A DNA stretch of 37,441 bases from Clostridia bacterium (lineage in GTDB: Bacteria; Bacillota; Clostridia; Christensenellales; Pumilibacteraceae). The translations under genes were made by a program, and so were the position numbers. The stretch spans positions 1 to 37,441 of the forward strand of contig JAAVYI010000030.1 of the NCBI GenBank assembly GCA_022791055.1, given 5' to 3'. Position 1 is the first letter of the stretch. Each line of letters begins with the position of its first letter. Below are positions 1 through 5,615 of the stretch, piece after piece. The notes below the pieces were generated by a model. It was not told the origin of the DNA. It worked only from the letters and a program-made list of their open reading frames with translations, and did no database searches.

Positions 1-455
1 CCGTAGGGCGCGACGCGGCGGCACTGTGTGCCGCAAAAAATGTCCGGGGGACATTTTTTAGCTAAAGCGGCGCAGCAGCTATGCTGCAAGCTGGTCGTCG
101 TTGCGGTACGGGTTAAGAGAGAGGGACACAGTCGAAAGTGTCCCTCTCTCTTACAGTTTTCGCCGAGGCCTTTTGATGTCAAAAGGCCGGGGATCCGTTT
201 TGCAATCTTTTACAAAAGAACAACAATCTTTTTGGCGGCAAAAGGCCGGAAATTCGGTTTTCGTTCTTTTTCAAAAGAAAAGCAATCCTTTGTGCAAAAA
301 GCGTGAGTATTATTTTGTAGTCTTTTGCTAAAAGACTTTTCTTTCCTTTTGACGCCAAAAGGTAAGAATTGTTTTGTAGTCTTTTACTTAAAAGACTTTC
401 GTCCCCTTCAGCCCGCAAAAGGCCGAAAACCCGTTTAACGCCTTTTTCAAATGCC
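1..455. repeat. Modular hairpin-rich intergenic repeat, copy 1
   Basis: No credible gene lies before 599. The block has a perfect 16-bp hairpin at 114-153 (core GGGACAC, 8-nt loop AGTCGAAA, GTGTCCC), a 10-bp palindrome GGCCTTTTGA-TG-TCAAAAGGCC at 167-188, and further CTTTTG/CAAAAG palindromes. Positions 297-361 match 29149-29213 in the same orientation with only about two differences, and 105-210 match the reverse complement of the left half of copy 2. Bases 1-105 look like a secondary insertion, because their 21-bp inner palindrome around 38-58 recurs inverted in copy 3. Small ORFs in all frames are read-through of the repeat and are not called. Confidence 0.8.
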
Positions 456-598: not shown

Positions 599-1186
599 AT
601 GAAATATACAATCGAATGTGCCGACGCGGTACTCAAGCGCGTCTTTTCGGGGCGAATGGAATATCGGTCGACCGTCAGTGTGCCGGCGGGGTTGGAGGCC
701 GTTTTCGTGCGCGGCGGGCAGGTCATCGACTTGCTGCGCGCGGGCGAACACGTCATCAACGAGCGCACCGGCTTTACATTGCGGTCGGCGTCGAAAGAGA
801 CTTGCGAGTTGTACGCCGTTTGTCGGGCGAAACCGTTTGACGTTCTGTGGGGCGTAGGCGGGGTCGAAGTCGACGGCAAGACGTTGGGCGTCAGCGGCAG
901 TTATCGTGTGACGGTCGACAATCCGCTGTCGATCCTCAGGCGGTTCGGATTTGTCGAATCGTTAGACGCCGCCTCACTGCGCACGATGATGAAGGGCGCC
1001 GTGACCGATGCGGTGCGCGAAGAGTTGCACGTAAGCCAGCGCGATCTGGCGGCGCGTATCAAAACGCGTTTAACGCCGGTCATGTTGGACTGCGGGTTGT
1101 ATTTGGATGCGTTTTGTGTAGACGAAGTGCGCGATATGAAAGCGCAGTCCTCGTCGGATTCGGATAATACGGAGAACATACTATGA
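599..1186 (+). CDS. Short SPFH/band-7-like protein
   Basis: 195 aa. The start is ATG 599, 8 nt after GGAGAG (585-590). GTG 593 is in frame but too close to that site. The N-terminal part (about residues 25-55) follows the pattern of YdjI-type SPFH proteins: a 'VxxGQVxDxxxxGxHxxN'-like segment, here GGQVIDLLRAGEHVIN. The middle has a 'GSYRVTVDNP' strand like the SPFH beta-sheet, followed by a helical region and a 'GLYLDAFCVDEVR' segment where the family has 'GIxxxxfxv'. No transmembrane helix is visible. SPFH proteins scaffold membrane microdomains, and in Bacillus the SPFH protein YdjI is encoded with the ESCRT-III relative PspA. Here it opens an operon with ESCRT-III-like proteins, which fits a membrane-recruiting role. 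It overlaps the next gene by 4 bp. The family call is from pattern memory; a remote-homology search should settle it. Confidence 0.6.
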   Translation: MKYTIECADAVLKRVFSGRMEYRSTVSVPAGLEAVFVRGGQVIDLLRAGEHVINERTGFTLRSASKETCELYAVCRAKPFDVLWGVGGVEVDGKTLGVSGSYRVTVDNPLSILRRFGFVESLDAASLRTMMKGAVTDAVREELHVSQRDLAARIKTRLTPVMLDCGLYLDAFCVDEVRDMKAQSSSDSDNTENIL

Positions 1187-1479
1187 AAATTCGGGAAAAG
1201 AAACTCAATTTCAATCGCGTTTCGCGCGACGAGACGGTGGCGATGCTGGCGTCCTTACGGGAGCGCGTGGACGATGCGGCCGTCAAAGGGCGGCTTCGGG
1301 CGTTGGAAGATAAGTTGGCGGTTTGTCCGCCGACCGCCGACACGGACGCGGCGGCGACCGATGCGGAGCTTAGGGCGCTTGCGACCGATTTTATGCAAGT
1401 GTATGCGCAGGGCGTGCTGACCGAACGTTATTTGCAGCGCATGGAAAATCTGACGGCGCGCCGTATGCGGTTTATGTAG
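1183..1479 (+). CDS. Small helical protein of the ESCRT-like operon
   Basis: 98 aa, start ATG 1183 overlapping the previous stop (ATGA), so probably translationally coupled. I do not recognise a family. The sequence is almost entirely predicted helix: a basic N-terminus (MKIREKKLNF), a heptad-like stretch around residues 17-47, an Ala/Asp/Thr linker around 50-62 and a second helix to the C-terminus. There is no signal peptide or membrane segment. Its fixed place between an SPFH-like gene and the Snf7-like genes suggests an adaptor or regulatory subunit of the same complex; that is inference from context only. Confidence 0.7.
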   Translation: MKIREKKLNFNRVSRDETVAMLASLRERVDDAAVKGRLRALEDKLAVCPPTADTDAAATDAELRALATDFMQVYAQGVLTERYLQRMENLTARRMRFM

Positions 1480-1492
1480 GAGGATGAAGGCG

Positions 1493-2140
1493 ATGTTCGG
1501 GAAAAAGAAAAATAAAAAATACGACTACCGGGAAAAGCTCGACCGTATCGAGCGCTCGATCTGGGAACTGGAAAACAAGCAGATCGTCTATTTGGATAAG
1601 CTGAAAGCGGTTGTCGCCAAGCAGGCCGACTACAAGCAGAAAGGGAAAAGCGCGGCCGACCGTAATATGCAACGGCACTGGGCGTCGCTGTATCTCAACT
1701 GCGAAAAGGAAAAGGAGCAGATCGCCGCGTCGATCAATCAGATCAGCAAGGAGATCGTCACGGCGGCGCGCATGGCGCAGCTTGTCGATACGCAGGCGCT
1801 GACGATCGAGTTGGAGAAAACCGAATCGCTGACGCTGGCCGAGATCAACGAGATGAGCGACAGTATCGCCAAAAGCCGCACCAAGCGCGAGGCCGAACAG
1901 TCATTAAAGGACGAAGCGATCGACCGCGCTCTCAGAGTGACCGACCGCGACACCGACAGCGACGTCGACCGCGTGTTGGGGCTGTGGGAAGAGGAGAAGA
2001 GCGCCGAGGACGAACTGCGCTTGACCGAGCAACCCGTCGCCGCACCCGTGACCGCGCCGGAAGTCGAGGCCGACAGCGTGCTCGATGCGTGGGGAGCGGA
2101 AGAGACGGACGCGCCGGACAAGGACAAAATCAGCGAGTAA
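1493..2140 (+). CDS. ESCRT-III/Snf7-like coiled-coil protein A with tandem VLxxW motifs
   Basis: 215 aa. ATG 1493 is chosen because TAGGAGG (1477-1483) sits 9 nt upstream; ATG 1484 directly abuts that site and is rejected. Residues 1-10 are basic (MFGKKKNKKY), residues 11-150 are helical and charged, and the last 65 residues are acidic. That basic core with an acidic tail is the ESCRT-III organisation, and the length matches CHMP proteins (about 200-220 aa). The tail carries a repeated motif: DRVLGLWEEE (about 159-168) and DSVLDAWGAEE (about 194-204), both VLxxW followed by acidic residues, separated by a Pro/Ala/Val linker. In ESCRT-III proteins the tail holds short motifs that bind the MIT domain of Vps4, and an MIT-like ATPase is encoded two genes downstream. 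The Snf7 assignment is inferred from architecture and context, since sequence identity is low. Confidence 0.6.
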   Translation: MFGKKKNKKYDYREKLDRIERSIWELENKQIVYLDKLKAVVAKQADYKQKGKSAADRNMQRHWASLYLNCEKEKEQIAASINQISKEIVTAARMAQLVDTQALTIELEKTESLTLAEINEMSDSIAKSRTKREAEQSLKDEAIDRALRVTDRDTDSDVDRVLGLWEEEKSAEDELRLTEQPVAAPVTAPEVEADSVLDAWGAEETDAPDKDKISE

Positions 2141-2150
2141 GGGGACTGGT

Positions 2151-2726
2151 ATGAAAAGCAAAGAGGAAAAGCAGATCGAGGAACGCATGATGGTGCGCCG
2201 CACCATCAACCGCATGAGCAAGTATGTGGCCGACCTCGAGCCGAAGAAAAAGCAGTTTATCGAGAAAGCAAAAGAGGCGCGGCTTAAAGGGGCGACCAAC
2301 CAGGAGCGTCTGGCTAAGAACGCCTTAAAACAGGTGTTGGCGCAGCAGCGCATGGCCGAACAAATGCTGTTGAACTTCGAGATCACCGCGCAGCTGAAGG
2401 ACTTGACCGAACTGTCGGGCGAGTTCATGAAAGGCATGACGTCGGTCAGCAAGGAAATGAGCAAGATGGCCGACAAGATCAATTTCGGCGCGGCGACCAA
2501 AGAGTTTTCTAAAGCGATGGCCAAGTCGCAAATGCAATCGGAAAAAATGTCGTCCTTTTTGGAGCGGCTGGGAGAGACGTTCGATATTGCCGTAGCCGAC
2601 AGCGACAGCATTGCCGACGAAGAAGTCGACGCGCTGATCGACGGCGTGACGAGCGAAGTCGAAAGCGCGCTCGACCGCGACATCGACGAAAAACTCAAGC
2701 GCGTGCAACAGGCGATCAAGGGGTAG
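2151..2726 (+). CDS. ESCRT-III/Snf7 (CHMP2/Vps2-type)-like protein B
   Basis: 191 aa. Start ATG 2151 with AAGGGG 6 nt upstream; the gap to the previous gene is 10 nt. Residues 1-75 are two basic helices (a hairpin such as ESCRT-III alpha1-alpha2), 76-140 are Met-rich and amphipathic (LKDLTELSGEFMKGMTSVSK region), and 150-191 are acidic and end in DIDEKLKRVQQAIKG. This resembles CHMP2/Vps2/Vps24-class proteins, including the spacing of 'M..m.F...se.m' segments and an acidic 'DEEVDALID' stretch before a terminal helix. The terminal helix partly matches the MIT-interacting motif MIM1 (D/E-x2-L ... L-K/R), but the R-L pair is not in register. Family members polymerise on membranes and are disassembled by Vps4. 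It is followed after 3 nt by the Vps4-like ATPase, the strongest context support. Confidence 0.68.
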   Translation: MKSKEEKQIEERMMVRRTINRMSKYVADLEPKKKQFIEKAKEARLKGATNQERLAKNALKQVLAQQRMAEQMLLNFEITAQLKDLTELSGEFMKGMTSVSKEMSKMADKINFGAATKEFSKAMAKSQMQSEKMSSFLERLGETFDIAVADSDSIADEEVDALIDGVTSEVESALDRDIDEKLKRVQQAIKG

Positions 2727-2729
2727 ACC

Positions 2730-3869
2730 GTGGCCGATCTCAATCAAGCGTTTTTGTACGACGCGTTCAATATGTATTATCAAAAAGGCATGGAGGCCAA
2801 GGCGGCCGGCAACGTCGCGCTCGCCCGCAGTCAGCTTTTGAAAGCGTCCGAAACGCTGTTAAAGTTGGCTGCGCTCTCGAGCGGCGAGCTGAAAAAAGCG
2901 CGCGCCGATCGCGCCATGCGGCTGTTCGAGATCGCCTCGTCGTTCGACGGCGGCGAAGTGCGGCAAGTAAGTAAGGGCGGGCAAACGGCGACGGCGGCCA
3001 AAACGAGCGCGCCGCAGGGCGACGACCCCGATCTGACCAAGTGGGCGGCGGAGTCGGTGCCCGATGTGCGATTTGAGGATGTGGCCGGTCTCGACGACGT
3101 CAAAAAGGCGATCACCGAACGCATTATTTTGCCGCGCAAATATCCCGATGTGTACAAGCGTTTTCGGAAAAAAGCGGGCGGCGGTATTTTGATGTACGGC
3201 CCGCCAGGCACCGGCAAAACGTTTGTCGCACGGGCTACGGCCGGCGAGGTGGGCGCAAAATTCTATTCGGTCAAGTGTTCGGACATTCTGAGCAAATGGT
3301 TCGGCGACGCCGAACAGAACGTGCGCAACCTGTTCGAAACGGCGCGCGCGCAAGAGGCGGCGGTCATCTTTTTCGACGAGTTCGAGGCGATCGGCACGAC
3401 GCGCGACGGCAGCGATCCGGCCATGCAACGGCTGATCCCCGAGATCCTCGCGCAGATGGACGGCTTTGAAAAGCACGAAGGCACGTTGCTGTTTATCGCG
3501 GCGACCAATAAGCCGTGGATGCTCGATTCGGCGTTTTTGCGCCCCGGCCGTTTTGCCGAACGCATTTACGTGCCGCTCCCGGACGAGGCGGCGCGGCGGT
3601 ATATGCTCGAGCGGTACTATCGTCATTTGCCGGTGGCCGACGACGTGGATTTTGTAAGCCTTGTGCGGCGCACGGACGGCTATTCGGGATCGGATATTCA
3701 CGAGCTGTGCGAGCAGTCCAAGCAGCCCGGCATCATGCGCGCTATCGAAAAGGGCGCGGGCGATTACGAGTTTATCACGGCGGCGGACATTACGGCGGCG
3801 TTCGACCGCGTGCGGCCGAGCGTGGCGAGCGGCGATATTGGCCGCTTCGAGCAGTTCCGTCGGGAATAG
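2730..3869 (+). CDS. Vps4-like AAA ATPase with N-terminal MIT-like domain
   Basis: 379 aa, GTG start 2730 with an AAGGGG site just upstream. Residues 8-72 form a three-helix, Ala/Lys-rich unit typical of MIT domains; a Gly/Ser/Thr linker (about 73-108) follows, then one AAA module. Visible motifs: Walker A GPPGTGKT (157-164), the pore-loop signature SKWFGDAE (188-195), Walker B VIFFDE (212-217), sensor 1 N260, arginine fingers in RPGRF (271-275) and SGSD (319-322). The KW-[FM]-G pore loop and MIT plus single-AAA layout are those of Vps4 and the meiotic clade (katanin, spastin, Vps4), not FtsH or Cdc48. Vps4 uses ATP to pull ESCRT-III subunits out of membrane polymers. Two ESCRT-III-like proteins precede it. 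All catalytic residues look intact. The meiotic-clade placement is fairly secure; the MIT call is less so. Confidence 0.82.
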   Translation: MADLNQAFLYDAFNMYYQKGMEAKAAGNVALARSQLLKASETLLKLAALSSGELKKARADRAMRLFEIASSFDGGEVRQVSKGGQTATAAKTSAPQGDDPDLTKWAAESVPDVRFEDVAGLDDVKKAITERIILPRKYPDVYKRFRKKAGGGILMYGPPGTGKTFVARATAGEVGAKFYSVKCSDILSKWFGDAEQNVRNLFETARAQEAAVIFFDEFEAIGTTRDGSDPAMQRLIPEILAQMDGFEKHEGTLLFIAATNKPWMLDSAFLRPGRFAERIYVPLPDEAARRYMLERYYRHLPVADDVDFVSLVRRTDGYSGSDIHELCEQSKQPGIMRAIEKGAGDYEFITAADITAAFDRVRPSVASGDIGRFEQFRRE

Positions 3870-3882
3870 AGGAGAACAGCGT

Positions 3883-5091
3883 TTGAAAATCGATACTTTT
3901 GCCTACGTCGACCGCGTCGTCAACGTGCTGGAGAACGACCGCGCCGCCTTTTCGCAGGCTGCGGCCGAACTGATTGCCTTTTTGGAGCAGTCATTAGGCG
4001 GCAACGATGAAATCGTCGGTATCACCGATAGGATCAAGACGTCGGCAAGTTTGCGCGAAAAGATCGTGCGCAACGGCCTGTACAAGCAGTACCCGGCCGA
4101 AGAACTTTTGTATCACATGTCCGACATCATCGGCGTGCGCATCGAGTGCCGCTTTTTGGCCGACGAGCAAAACGTATTCGCGTTTCTGCGCGCTCTGTTT
4201 TGTAACCGCATCGGCGACGGTCCGTTTTACGCACCCGAGGGGAATGCGGCGTTTAAACTCAACCTCGATGCGCCGCAACCCGAACAGCAGAAGAACGGGC
4301 TGAATATCTACCGTATCGACGGCTATGTCGAGCGCGACGGCGTGCAGTACAATTTCGAGATCCAGATCAAATCGCTGGTCAACAGTTTCTGGTCGGAGAT
4401 CGAACACAAACTGATTTACAAGAACAAGCGGTTTATGATGATCGACCGCTTTGTCAACGATATGATGCTGTCGATTCACGAGAGCCTGATAAACATTGAC
4501 GCGCAACTCAATATGATCTACAGTCGATGTCTCAATAACAACGTCGACCAGCAAATGCAGCAGATCGAGAACGTGCTGACCGCGCTGATCAACGAGGTGT
4601 ACACCAATCTGATCGAAGAGAAAGTCGGGTTCGGCGTCAACATCAAGGACTATTCGGAAAGCCTGGTCAAATATATTTTGTACTACTCGAGCTTTATCCG
4701 CCGCAAGGCCGGCCCGGACGAAATGTACGGCAATACGGTGATGAACGTCATGAACTGGATGCGCAAGGTCGATTTCGACGCCATTCGTATCGGCGAAAAG
4801 ATTTATATCGAGGGCGAAATTGCCTACGAGAACGACTTGCAACGCACGATCGGCGCATATATTTTGGAATACGTCAACAGCGATTTCTACCTCAACACCT
4901 TTTTTCATATCTTTTTTTCGATCGAAGTCGGCGACGATGCGCAGGACTTTTTGAGCTATGTCAAGTACTACGAAAAGCGTATTTCGGCCGGCGCGGATCC
5001 TGCGCGCCGCGTTCTATTAAAAGACCGTGTGCGCCACCTCGACCCGTGCAAAATGGTGTTGGAAAAGACTATCGCGCAAATTCGCGAATAA
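3883..5091 (+). CDS. RelA/SpoT-fold nucleotidyltransferase-like protein with C-terminal helical extension
   Basis: 402 aa. TTG 3883 is chosen: GGAGAA (3871-3876) is correctly spaced and only 13 nt separate it from the ATPase gene; upstream codons in frame overlap that gene. Residues 45-180 match the small alarmone synthetase pattern: DRIKTSASLREKI (about 49-61, the R-x-K...S...K ATP site), SDIIGVRI with D81 as likely Mg ligand, and FEIQIKSLVNSFWSEIEH (158-175) with E159 as the catalytic Glu. The G-loop that normally reads Y-R-S-x-H is altered (KNGLNIYRIDG, 137-147), so guanine binding may differ or be lost. Residues 190-402 are a long helical extension not seen in RelP/RelQ. It may make (p)ppGpp or another pyrophosphorylated nucleotide, or be a binding-only relative. 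Being last in the ESCRT-like operon suggests a signalling link. The stop codon directly abuts repeat copy 2. Confidence 0.68.
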   Translation: MKIDTFAYVDRVVNVLENDRAAFSQAAAELIAFLEQSLGGNDEIVGITDRIKTSASLREKIVRNGLYKQYPAEELLYHMSDIIGVRIECRFLADEQNVFAFLRALFCNRIGDGPFYAPEGNAAFKLNLDAPQPEQQKNGLNIYRIDGYVERDGVQYNFEIQIKSLVNSFWSEIEHKLIYKNKRFMMIDRFVNDMMLSIHESLINIDAQLNMIYSRCLNNNVDQQMQQIENVLTALINEVYTNLIEEKVGFGVNIKDYSESLVKYILYYSSFIRRKAGPDEMYGNTVMNVMNWMRKVDFDAIRIGEKIYIEGEIAYENDLQRTIGAYILEYVNSDFYLNTFFHIFFSIEVGDDAQDFLSYVKYYEKRISAGADPARRVLLKDRVRHLDPCKMVLEKTIAQIRE

Positions 5092-5615
5092 ATTGCTATT
5101 CTTTTGAAAAAGAGAGCAAAACGGAACACCGGCCTTTTGGCATCAAAAGGCCTAGGCGAAAACTGTAAGGGAGAGGGACACTTTCGACTGTGTCCCTCTC
5201 CCTTAACTCTCTCCCCGCAACGACTTCCCTACGGGAAGCGATAAGGACGGGTTTACAAAGTGTAGCTAAGAAGTCGGTGAAACAAATGCACTCTCTTTTT
5301 ATCCATATATTTTGATAATTGATATGACTTTTAAAGAGGAGTCCAGAGACATAGTCTTTGGCAGTTGCGAGGGGGAGATTTACAAGAGGGGGAACACAGT
5401 CTGAAGTGTTCCCCCTCTTGTACGGTTTTGGTCTCACCTTTTGGCGGCAAAAGGTGAGAATTGTTTTCGGCCTTTTCGGAAAAGACTTCCGTCTCCTTTA
5501 GAATGCAAAAGGCCGGAGTTTCGTTTTGTACTCTTTTTTAAAAGGAAATAACCTTTGGTGACTTCAAAAAATCAAAATCCGTTTTCACTCTTTTATAAAA
5601 GGCAGTTGCTTTGTT
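5092..5615. repeat. Modular hairpin-rich intergenic repeat, copy 2 (inverted pair of hairpins)
   Basis: Begins at the base after the stop codon of the RelA-like gene. It has two long perfect hairpins in opposite orientation: 5166-5205 (16-bp stem, loop TTTCGACT) and 5381-5422 (17-bp stem, loop AGTCTGAA, the diverged reverse complement). Outside each lies a CTTTTG/CAAAAG palindrome (5131-5152 and 5433-5458). The left ~85 bp and right ~85 bp are recognisably inverted copies of one another, so the unit resembles an element with long terminal inverted repeats. Between them is a GACTTCCC/GGGAAG mini-hairpin near 5221-5241 and AT-rich filler. No protein gene is supported. The hairpins may also end transcription from the operon. 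Confidence 0.82.

What the first reader, a model, noticed from the sequence alone, without database searches (positions are those of the whole stretch)
2151..3869. Bacterial ESCRT-III plus Vps4-like pair
A Vps4/meiotic-clade AAA ATPase (MIT-like N-terminus, pore loop SKWFGDAE, intact Walker A/B, arginine fingers) directly follows a CHMP2-like protein with basic core and acidic tail. Seen: motifs and adjacency. Known: Vps4 disassembles ESCRT-III polymers through MIT binding of tail motifs; bacterial ESCRT-III relatives (PspA, Vipp1) normally lack a Vps4 partner. Inferred: a complete bacterial ESCRT-type machine.
Basis: partly seen in the sequence, partly recalled or inferred. Interest (0 to 1): 0.93.

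Follow-up and report, generated by a model that had tools for sequence, protein, structure and literature searches.

The report
Bacterial ESCRT-III and Vps4 operon
A bacterium related to uncultured Clostridia carries, in one compact gene cluster, predicted ESCRT-III membrane-polymer proteins directly followed by an ATPase of the Vps4 clade, a pairing that a 2024 survey placed only in archaea and eukaryotes; it likely builds and takes apart a protein coat on the cell membrane, probably in response to stress or phage attack.

Summary
ESC3 (2151-2726) is a likely ESCRT-III homologue of Vps2/CHMP2 type: Pfam Snf7 E 4.5e-6, just under the cut-off; profile-profile score 45.9, against at most 27.1 in 200 shuffles. 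The ATPase (2730-3869) groups with Vps4, CdvC, katanin and spastin, apart from Cdc48 and FtsH (100/97), behind a predicted MIT domain resembling archaeal Vps4 MIT (TM 0.78). The ESC3 tail resembles MIM1. The pair is conserved: 70 of 71 ESC3 loci have an AAA gene downstream on the same strand, 56 within 200 bases. The unit is larger than reported: SPFH protein, small protein, a second predicted ESCRT-III-like protein, ESC3, ATPase, then an alarmone-synthetase-like gene; in relatives TIR-like, BrxL or protease genes follow instead. The inferred role is an ESCRT-type membrane responder with exchangeable effectors. Membrane binding, disassembly, MIT-tail docking and the stress or defence role are untested, and 'complete' is not shown: I made no dedicated search for ESCRT-I/II. 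[quoted passage not shown]

The parts
599..1186 (+). SPFH/Band-7-like protein (195 aa; alternative start GTG 593), first gene of the unit
   Evidence: Band_7_1 E 0.0051, below cut-off, in the window protein; a relative in the same place (L006) reaches 3.4e-19 and carries zinc ribbons; homologue upstream on the same strand in 63 of 71 loci
1183..1479 (+). small 98-aa protein, overlaps the SPFH gene by 4 nt
   Evidence: no Pfam or NCBIfam match at E <= 1; homologue in L002 and L003
1484..2140 (+). CC218: second, predicted ESCRT-III-like protein (218 aa)
   Evidence: AlphaFold2 helices 15-56, 60-112, 118-150, 157-182, mean pLDDT 80.9; 25 of the 50 Foldseek rows shown are Vipp1, PspA, CHMP, Snf7 or Asgard ESCRT-III; sequence profile alone not significant; counterpart within 200 bases of ESC3 in 66 of 71 loci
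2151..2726 (+). ESC3: likely ESCRT-III homologue of Vps2/CHMP2 type (191 aa)
   Evidence: Snf7 4.5e-6; hhalign 45.9 against null maximum 27.1 in 200 shuffles; predicted helices 4-45, 49-103, 112-142, 156-165, 169-188
2673..2708 (+). MIM1-like tail motif DRDIDEKLKRVQ of ESC3
   Evidence: relaxed MIM1 pattern (recalled) in 32 of 72 tails, shuffled mean 1.0, maximum 6; strict pattern in 0 of 72; a tail motif written after seeing the tails is in 70 of 72, at most 2 in shuffles
2730..3869 (+). Vps4-clade AAA ATPase (379 aa, GTG start)
   Evidence: AAA 7.4e-40; NCBIfam CdvC model matched over residues 13-376, 212 bits, far under its cut-off of 650; tree 100/97 with Vps4, CdvC, katanin, spastin
2730..2951 (+). 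predicted MIT domain, three helices at the N-terminus of the ATPase
3774..3863 (+). Vps4_C-like C-terminal region of the ATPase
   Evidence: Vps4_C 9.6e-4, 19.5 bits against a cut-off of 21.3
3883..5091 (+). RelA/SpoT-type small alarmone synthetase-like protein, 402 aa, TTG start
   Evidence: PF04607 3.3e-14 (read from 3871); YwaC 6fgk 2.6e-8; same place in L002 and L003 only, of 71 loci

Best explanation
The operon at 599-5091 encodes a likely ESCRT-III homologue and a second predicted one, followed by a Vps4-clade AAA ATPase with a predicted MIT domain, and it likely works as a bacterial ESCRT: the ESCRT-III proteins would polymerise on the membrane at a site marked by the SPFH protein, the ATPase would grip the MIM1-like tail of ESC3 through its MIT domain and pull subunits through its pore, and this would switch or localise the alarmone-synthetase-like partner when the membrane is damaged or attacked. 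Shown by sequence and calls: gene content, gene order, the AAA clade, the profile link of ESC3 to Vps2/CHMP2, and the conservation of the pair. Predicted: the MIT fold, the CC218 fold and the helix layout of ESC3. Inferred: membrane binding, polymer disassembly, the SPFH anchor (by analogy with YdjI and PspA in Bacillus subtilis) and the effector coupling (from TIR-like, BrxL and protease genes standing after the ATPase in relatives where the window has the alarmone-synthetase-like gene).
For: ESC3: Snf7 4.5e-6 and no PspA_IM30 match at E <= 1; 27.9 bits, over the cut-off, in the genome search; hhalign to six ESCRT-III proteins 88.6%, score 45.9, against 0.3% for the reversed set and maxima of 20.5 and 27.1 in 2 x 100 shuffles. 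ATPase: 33 rows (26 of the bacterial family, 4 Vps4/katanin/spastin, 3 CdvC) form one side of a branch at 100/97; held with Cdc48 D2 p-AU 0.037, with FtsH 0.044. MIT: model; 2w2u, 4u7i, 2v6y and 2k3w at Foldseek probability 1.00; 17 of the 50 rows by Z are MIT domains or their complexes, one of them (Calpain-7) by recall. CC218. Conserved pair: 70 of 71. SPFH homologue upstream on the same strand within 4 kb in 63 of 71; the other 8 hold at most 2.3 kb of upstream DNA. CC218 counterpart within 200 bases of ESC3 in 66 of 71. Downstream on the same strand within 5.5 kb of ESC3: TIR-like domain in 38 of 71, trypsin-like in 15, BrxL in 6, alarmone-synthetase-like in 2 (all). TIR_2 1e-8, Trypsin_2 1e-28 and BrxL_ATPase 5.8e-115 on examples. 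The glutamate aligned with the catalytic one (recalled) is present in 47 of 47 TIR-like hits. Against L002 dN is 0.25-0.40 and dS 1.2-2.7, saturated. YdjI is required to localise PspA to the membrane (PMC8581546, abstract).
Against: Single-sequence evidence is thin: only 6 of 49 ESC3 relatives match Snf7 at E <= 0.01; only 5 of 38 N-termini match MIT at E <= 1, as many as match DUF1771, and the window's own does not; single ESCRT-III sequences reach at most 23.9 in hhalign, below the shuffle maximum; in an unfiltered HMMER search a shuffled decoy (5e-5) beat the best real ESCRT-III protein (0.0093). No Foldseek match has E <= 0.001; the top row for the ESC3-MIT model is a designed protein, and unrelated chains also reach probability 1.00. 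The ESC3 half is of low confidence beyond residue 80 and was barely tested by the structural aligner. For CC218 TM-scores stay under 0.5 on the query, unrelated hairpins tie with Snf7 by Z, and the sequence profile reached only 23.3, equalled by 1 of 60 shuffles. MIT profile score 25.0 against a null maximum of 24.7. Strict MIM1 pattern 0 of 72. 19 of the 40 TIR-like loci are weak (1e-12 to 5e-5), and in one of them (L050) Pfam sees no TIR. No defence system was recognised in the window proteins; the ATPase matches only AAA-bearing defence models.
Confidence: 0.67

Rival explanations
1. Same ESCRT-III/Vps4 machine, but a housekeeping one: it serves cell division, vesicle formation or another membrane fission, and the neighbouring effector-type genes are incidental.
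For: CdvB and CdvC act in cell division in archaea (PMC7615534 passages); in some relatives the ESC3 domain is fused to FtsK/SpoIIIE or RuvB-like domains.
Against: Patchy: 38 of 396 genomes of the order, own genome and one weak hit included; 5 of 391 in the class sample and 2 of 398 in the phylum sample, the own genome and weak partial hits included. That suits an accessory rather than an essential division system. A relative, L004, holds an FtsZ-type gene as read by eye.
Confidence: 0.15
2. Adaptor-unfoldase: the ATPase unfolds or extracts proteins (Msp1- or Cdc48-like quality control) and ESC3 is a soluble coiled-coil adaptor; no membrane polymer forms.
For: The ATPase scores highest against p97 chains in the PDB and against the CDC48 NCBIfam model (224 bits, CdvC 212); trypsin-like proteases follow in 15 of 71 loci.
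Against: A CdvC-type query shows p97 rows right after the CdvC chains and p97 rows count two matched stretches, so that ranking does not discriminate; the tree puts the family with Vps4/CdvC; ESC3 matches ESCRT-III proteins over 132 columns.
Confidence: 0.12
3. Look-alike: ESC3 and CC218 are ordinary coiled coils, the N-terminal bundle a generic three-helix domain, and the resemblance is one of composition.
For: Low-complexity bias is real: shuffled decoys score in HMMER; TPR-like, 14-3-3 and designed bundles also match the N-terminal domain.
Against: Profile score far over 200 shuffles, conserved order in 70 of 71 loci, and ESCRT-III structures in 25 of the 50 Foldseek rows shown for CC218.
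Confidence: 0.06

Closest known systems
Archaeal CdvB/CdvC and archaeal ESCRT systems (Makarova 2024, PMC10936438, passages seen)
   Same: ESCRT-III gene together with a one-domain MIT-AAA ATPase of the Vps4 clade; [quoted passage not shown]
   Different: Here in bacteria, which the same paper excludes ('confined to archaea and eukaryotes'); two ESCRT-III-type proteins of which one is recognisable only by predicted fold; RelA/SpoT, TIR-like, BrxL or protease neighbours; none of the window unit's six proteins matches a winged-helix family in Pfam at E <= 1, but no dedicated search for ESCRT-I/II was made
Eukaryotic ESCRT-III/Vps4 (Vps2/CHMP2 with MIM1 tail, Vps4 with MIT)
   Same: ESC3 core aligns with Vps2/CHMP proteins; tail DRDIDEKLKRVQ resembles MIM1 (recalled); ATPase groups with Vps4, katanin and spastin
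   Different: LRPGRF where yeast Vps4 has RRRFERR; much shorter C-terminal part; partners Vta1 and ESCRT-0/I/II not searched for
Bacterial PspA/Vipp1 with the SPFH protein YdjI (PMC8581546, abstract and outline)
   Same: SPFH protein working with an ESCRT-III-superfamily protein
   Different: ESC3 is Snf7-like, not PspA-like; a Vps4-clade ATPase is present; the window genome has no PspA over the Pfam cut-off (best 17.7 bits, cut-off 33.9, on another contig)
Bacterial Snf7/PspA with AAA+ ATPases (Ravi 2024, PMC11237479, section 18 read, other passages seen)
   Same: States that VPS4-like ATPases were transferred to bacteria and that some bacterial PspA/Snf7 genes neighbour AAA+ genes
   Different: There the transferred vps4 has lost snf7 ('displaced by an unrelated gene'), or the Snf7 homologue has a TM segment and transporter neighbours; the MIT-Vps4 plus Snf7 pair with SPFH and effector genes is not described in that section (its supplement was not available to me)

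Membership tests
ESCRT-III (Snf7/CHMP) | Sequence match to the Snf7 profile | tested here: inconclusive
   26.9 bits against a cut-off of 27.3; 27.9 in the genome search; only 6 of 49 relatives at E <= 0.01
ESCRT-III (Snf7/CHMP) | Profile-profile homology to known members | tested here: met
ESCRT-III (Snf7/CHMP) | Helical hairpin followed by helices 3-5 and a C-terminal helix | tested here: inconclusive
   Predicted helix order fits, but residues 81-150 have pLDDT near 50 and that half was barely tested by fold search
ESCRT-III (Snf7/CHMP) | C-terminal MIT-interacting motif | tested here: inconclusive
   Relaxed MIM1 in the window and in 32 of 72 tails in all, strict in 0 of 72; binding untested
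ESCRT-III (Snf7/CHMP) | Membrane-bound polymer | not testable with these tools
   Needs purified protein
ESCRT-III superfamily, protein CC218 | ESCRT-III fold | tested here: inconclusive
   25 of the 50 Foldseek rows shown are ESCRT-III relatives, E 0.02-0.9; Snf7 leads by Z but ties with other hairpins; sequence profile not significant
Vps4 (ESCRT-IV) | AAA domain in the Vps4/meiotic clade | tested here: met
   100/97 with Vps4, katanin, spastin, CdvC; position inside that clade unresolved (with CdvC p-AU 0.132; known members together without it 0.417)
Vps4 (ESCRT-IV) | N-terminal MIT domain | tested here: met
Vps4 (ESCRT-IV) | Vps4_C oligomerisation helix | tested here: inconclusive
   19.5 bits against a cut-off of 21.3
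Vps4 (ESCRT-IV) | Encoded with an ESCRT-III gene | tested here: met
   AAA gene downstream of ESC3 in 70 of 71 loci
Vps4 (ESCRT-IV) | ATP-driven disassembly of ESCRT-III | not testable with these tools
   Needs an assay
CdvC (NCBIfam NF041006) | Score over the curated cut-off of the CdvC model | tested here: not met
   212.4 bits against a cut-off of 650, although matched over nearly the whole length: a Vps4-clade ATPase, not a CdvC orthologue
PspA/Vipp1 (PF04012) | Match to the PspA_IM30 profile | tested here: not met
   No PspA_IM30 match for ESC3 or CC218 at E <= 1
Known anti-phage system | Match to a named defence system | tested here: not met
   PADLOC on 5 window proteins (the 98-aa one not scanned): ATPase matches only AAA-bearing models (IetA 1.6e-38, TRIP13, mad8, DolB); synthetase-like PDC-S33 at 0.0024; ESC3, CC218, SPFH none
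Small alarmone synthetase | RelA/SpoT synthetase domain | tested here: met
   PF04607 3.3e-14; YwaC 2.6e-8; activity untested

The most novel reading that the evidence does not exclude
A bacterial ESCRT that serves as an immune or damage responder: an SPFH platform and a two-subunit ESCRT-III polymer sense or seal a breached membrane, a Vps4-clade ATPase resets the polymer, and the polymer state licenses an exchangeable killer or arrest effector (alarmone synthetase here; TIR-like proteins with an invariant glutamate, BrxL or a trypsin-like protease in relatives).
Probability: 0.33. Interest if true: 0.95.

Novelty: new variant of a known kind. Interest (0 to 1): 0.86.

Why it matters
[quoted passage not shown] A conserved bacterial pair with a predicted MIT domain and a MIM-like tail bears on the age of the MIT-MIM code and on whether the machine was transferred or is ancient, and it offers a small system in which ESCRT function could be tested in bacteria. 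The TIR-like, BrxL and alarmone-synthetase-like genes beside it raise a testable link between membrane repair and bacterial immunity.

Tried and rejected
A first fused alignment placed the MIT rows on the ESC3 hairpin and was dropped; it was rebuilt with 14 rows in which both genes share a frame, out of 17 such relatives plus the window. Unfiltered HMMER of the ESC3 profile against known ESCRT-III proteins and decoys was useless: shuffled decoys scored better. The PDB sequence ranking with p97 on top was rejected as evidence for Cdc48, because a CdvC query shows p97 rows right after the CdvC chains. A direct homology of CC218 with ESC3 by sequence was not found (3.9%). PDB sequence searches with the ESC3 and MIT profiles gave nothing firm: for MIT the best rows were two unrelated proteins, then chitin synthase 1 at E 0.01. 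Single PspA and single ESCRT-III sequences do not separate by hhalign. Yeast Msp1 gave a long branch and was left out of the second tree. Rfam and tRNA scans of the window: none. Promoter and terminator scans gave a site at 518-546 (9 of 12) and a 17-pair stem at 5381-5422; such matches are common by chance. A first count of neighbours ignored strand and distance (SPFH 62, TIR-like 40, trypsin-like 16, BrxL 7 of 71); one search replaced it. Literature: 'ESCRT-III, Vps4, bacteria, operon, Snf7' 5 papers, 'Christensenellales, ESCRT' 0, 'Vps4, ESCRT-III, Bacillota' 1 unrelated, 'ESCRT, anti-phage, Vps4' 1 archaeal, 'Vps4-like, ESCRT-III, bacterial genomes' 1 review, 'PspA, SPFH, YdjI' 3, 2 listed, and two broader searches of which 20 of 113 and 20 of 28 papers were listed. 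Passages were also seen of PMC7618577 and PMC7159879 (no ESCRT). None of the listings, passages or sections seen describes this unit. Only open-licence papers are held and no supplements were open to me, so absence from print is not shown.

The MIM1 patterns are from recall; the 70-of-72 tail pattern was written after seeing the tails. The queries and the TIR model used for neighbour counts came from members of the set. The aligned glutamate of the weaker TIR-like hits depends on the alignment. In the class and phylum samples most genomes are outside the order, and rows without a match were only partly listed by the tool.
Full report
Observation. They sit inside a same-strand run of six genes with gaps of -4 to +13 nt: SPFH-like 599-1186, small protein 1183-1479, CC218 1484-2140, ESC3, ATPase, RelA/SpoT-like 3883-5091. 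The contig is bacterial by gene content (for example AddA/AddB-, MurC- and PEPCK-like ORFs read by eye) and part of a 2.17-Mb genome of 51 contigs, 97% complete. Its name is not given; relatives found by sequence bear titles such as Clostridia, Christensenellaceae and Firmicutes bacterium, and the order name Christensenellales would be my inference.

ESC3. Pfam gives Snf7 at 4.5e-6, 0.4 bits under the cut-off, and no PspA match; in the genome search it passes (27.9 bits). Among 49 family members only 6 match Snf7 at E <= 0.01, so the family is remote. Profile against profile the 49-row alignment matches six yeast and human ESCRT-III proteins over 132 columns with 88.6% probability and score 45.9; the reversed set gives 0.3%; 100 column shuffles reach at most 20.5 and 100 block shuffles at most 27.1. 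Against these proteins one at a time the best score is only 23.9 (CHMP2A). The AlphaFold2 model gives helices 4-45, 49-103, 112-142, 156-165 and 169-188, the ESCRT-III order, but confidence is low for most of the chain after residue 80.

The tail. The last helix of ESC3 holds DRDIDEKLKRVQ, close to the MIM1 motif of Vps2 and CHMP2A as recalled. A relaxed MIM1 pattern is in 32 of 72 tails (71 loci and the window), shuffled mean 1.0 and maximum 6; the strict pattern is in none. Many of the other tails have a similar helix with the first acidic residue shifted (listing).

The ATPase. The N-terminal domain is predicted as three helices with pLDDT about 91. Foldseek ranks archaeal Vps4 MIT 2w2u second and third, after a designed protein, and lists 2v6y (TMt 0.78, rmsd 1.7 over 68) and human VPS4A MIT 2k3w (TMt 0.74); these have probability 1.00 but E of 0.1 to 0.7, and some unrelated chains have probability 1.00 too. 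By Z, 17 of the 50 rows are MIT domains or their complexes (2w2u 11.4, rmsd 1.8 over 74; 2v6y 10.9), tied within 1 with some unrelated bundles. By sequence the MIT link is weak: 5 of 38, hhalign 42% and score 25.0 against a null maximum of 24.7 in 200 shuffles. In a 43-row tree the 26 rows of the bacterial family lie with yeast and human Vps4, katanin, spastin and CdvC at 100/97; forcing them to Cdc48 D2 costs 33.8 log units (p 0.037), to FtsH 36.8 (p 0.044), mild rejections. Where they stand inside the clade is open. The ATPase fails the cut-off of the NCBIfam CdvC model (212 against 650 bits), so it is a Vps4-clade ATPase rather than a CdvC orthologue.

CC218. The model has helices 15-56, 60-112, 118-150 and 157-182 with pLDDT 95-98 in the hairpin. 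Of the 50 Foldseek rows shown 25 are Vipp1, PspA, CHMP, Snf7 or Asgard ESCRT-III, the first two being Vipp1, with E from 0.02 to 0.9 and TM-scores under 0.5 on the query. Snf7 structures lead by Z (9jsd 11.6; 5fd9 rmsd 0.9 over 90) but other hairpins tie. The sequence profile does not confirm it: score 23.3, reached by 1 of 60 shuffles, and 3.9% against ESC3. I call it a predicted ESCRT-III-like protein.

Conservation. A scan of the species-genome collection found 71 loci coding for an ESC3 relative. Of these 70 have an AAA gene downstream on the same strand, 56 within 200 bases and 14 at 219-3896 bases; L003 has none, and the synthetase-like gene follows ESC3 there. 68 hold a match to the window ATPase at E <= 1e-60; L066 and L070 match weakly. 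An SPFH homologue lies upstream on the same strand within 4 kb in 63 of 71, and the 8 others hold at most 2.3 kb of upstream DNA; a CC218 counterpart lies within 200 bases of ESC3 in 66 of 71. In sampled genomes the family is patchy: 38 of 396 in the order, own genome and one weak hit included, 5 of 391 in the class sample and 2 of 398 in the phylum sample; two of the former and one of the latter are weak partial hits and the own genome is in both. The window genome has no PspA over the Pfam cut-off. Against L002, dN is 0.25-0.40 and dS 1.2-2.7 (saturated), so the five compared genes appear to be under purifying selection.

Neighbours. In the window the last gene resembles small alarmone synthetases (PF04607 3.3e-14; YwaC 2.6e-8); it is in the same place in L002 and L003 only. 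In relatives, downstream on the same strand within 5.5 kb of ESC3, a protein with a TIR-like domain stands in 38 of 71 loci, a trypsin-like protease in 15 and BrxL in 6 (examples confirmed with Pfam). Of the 40 loci with a TIR-like hit anywhere, 21 are strong (1e-19 or better) and 19 weak; Pfam sees no TIR in the weak example L050. All 47 TIR-like hits keep a glutamate at the place of the catalytic one (catalytic role recalled). In other genomes of the order the ESC3 domain is fused to FtsK/SpoIIIE or RuvB-like domains, and one locus has a TIR-NB-ARC-APAF1_C protein beside the pair.

How it likely works. By established knowledge Vps4 binds MIM motifs through MIT and threads ESCRT-III subunits through its pore, and in B. 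subtilis the SPFH protein YdjI is required to bring PspA to the membrane (PMC8581546, abstract). By analogy the SPFH protein would mark the membrane, ESC3 and CC218 would polymerise there, and the ATPase would turn the polymer over. Different enzymes standing after the ATPase in different relatives suggest an effector slot, hence a stress or defence role. That last step is inference from gene neighbourhood alone.

Known or new. [quoted passage not shown] a 2023 review says that bacteria lack a clear Vps4 homologue (passages). Ravi 2024 mentions Vps4-like ATPases in bacteria with snf7 displaced, and bacterial PspA/Snf7 genes beside AAA+ genes (section 18). I found no description of this unit in the searches listed under Tried and rejected. 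It is a new variant of a known kind.

Noticed in passing
L125:8772-10670, L126:4719-6251, L128:1301-4183, L130:4969-6633: The ESC3 domain is fused to FtsK/SpoIIIE domains (L125, L126) or RuvB-like AAA domains (L128, L130), an unusual coupling of an ESCRT-III-type domain to DNA motors.
   Followed up: partly
L126:8390-11710: TIR + NB-ARC + APAF1_C protein with weak beta-propeller matches, two genes after the ATPase of the pair, an apoptosome-like architecture.
   Followed up: partly
L004:11513-13600, L049:8683-12195, L006:3852-5885 and others: Zinc-ribbon/TPR proteins with a TIR-like domain near the pair, sometimes two in a row.
   Followed up: partly
L125 (G230) and the related genomes G095, G363: Three ESC3 matches on one contig within about 6 kb, possibly a composite polymer.
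   Followed up: no
L040, L057, L065, P0030: ATPases of about 650-710 aa with two AAA modules behind a MIT-like N-terminus.
   Followed up: partly
window 227-436 and 5092-5548: Related intergenic repeats, direct and inverted, flank the operon on both sides (for example arms 230-286 and 5092-5148, 79% complementary).
   Followed up: no
window 1920-2137 and A4 relatives: CC218 ends in VLGLW and VLDAW stretches, most aligned relatives in a (D/E)xxLLxxFE-like stretch, perhaps a second short binding motif.
   Followed up: no
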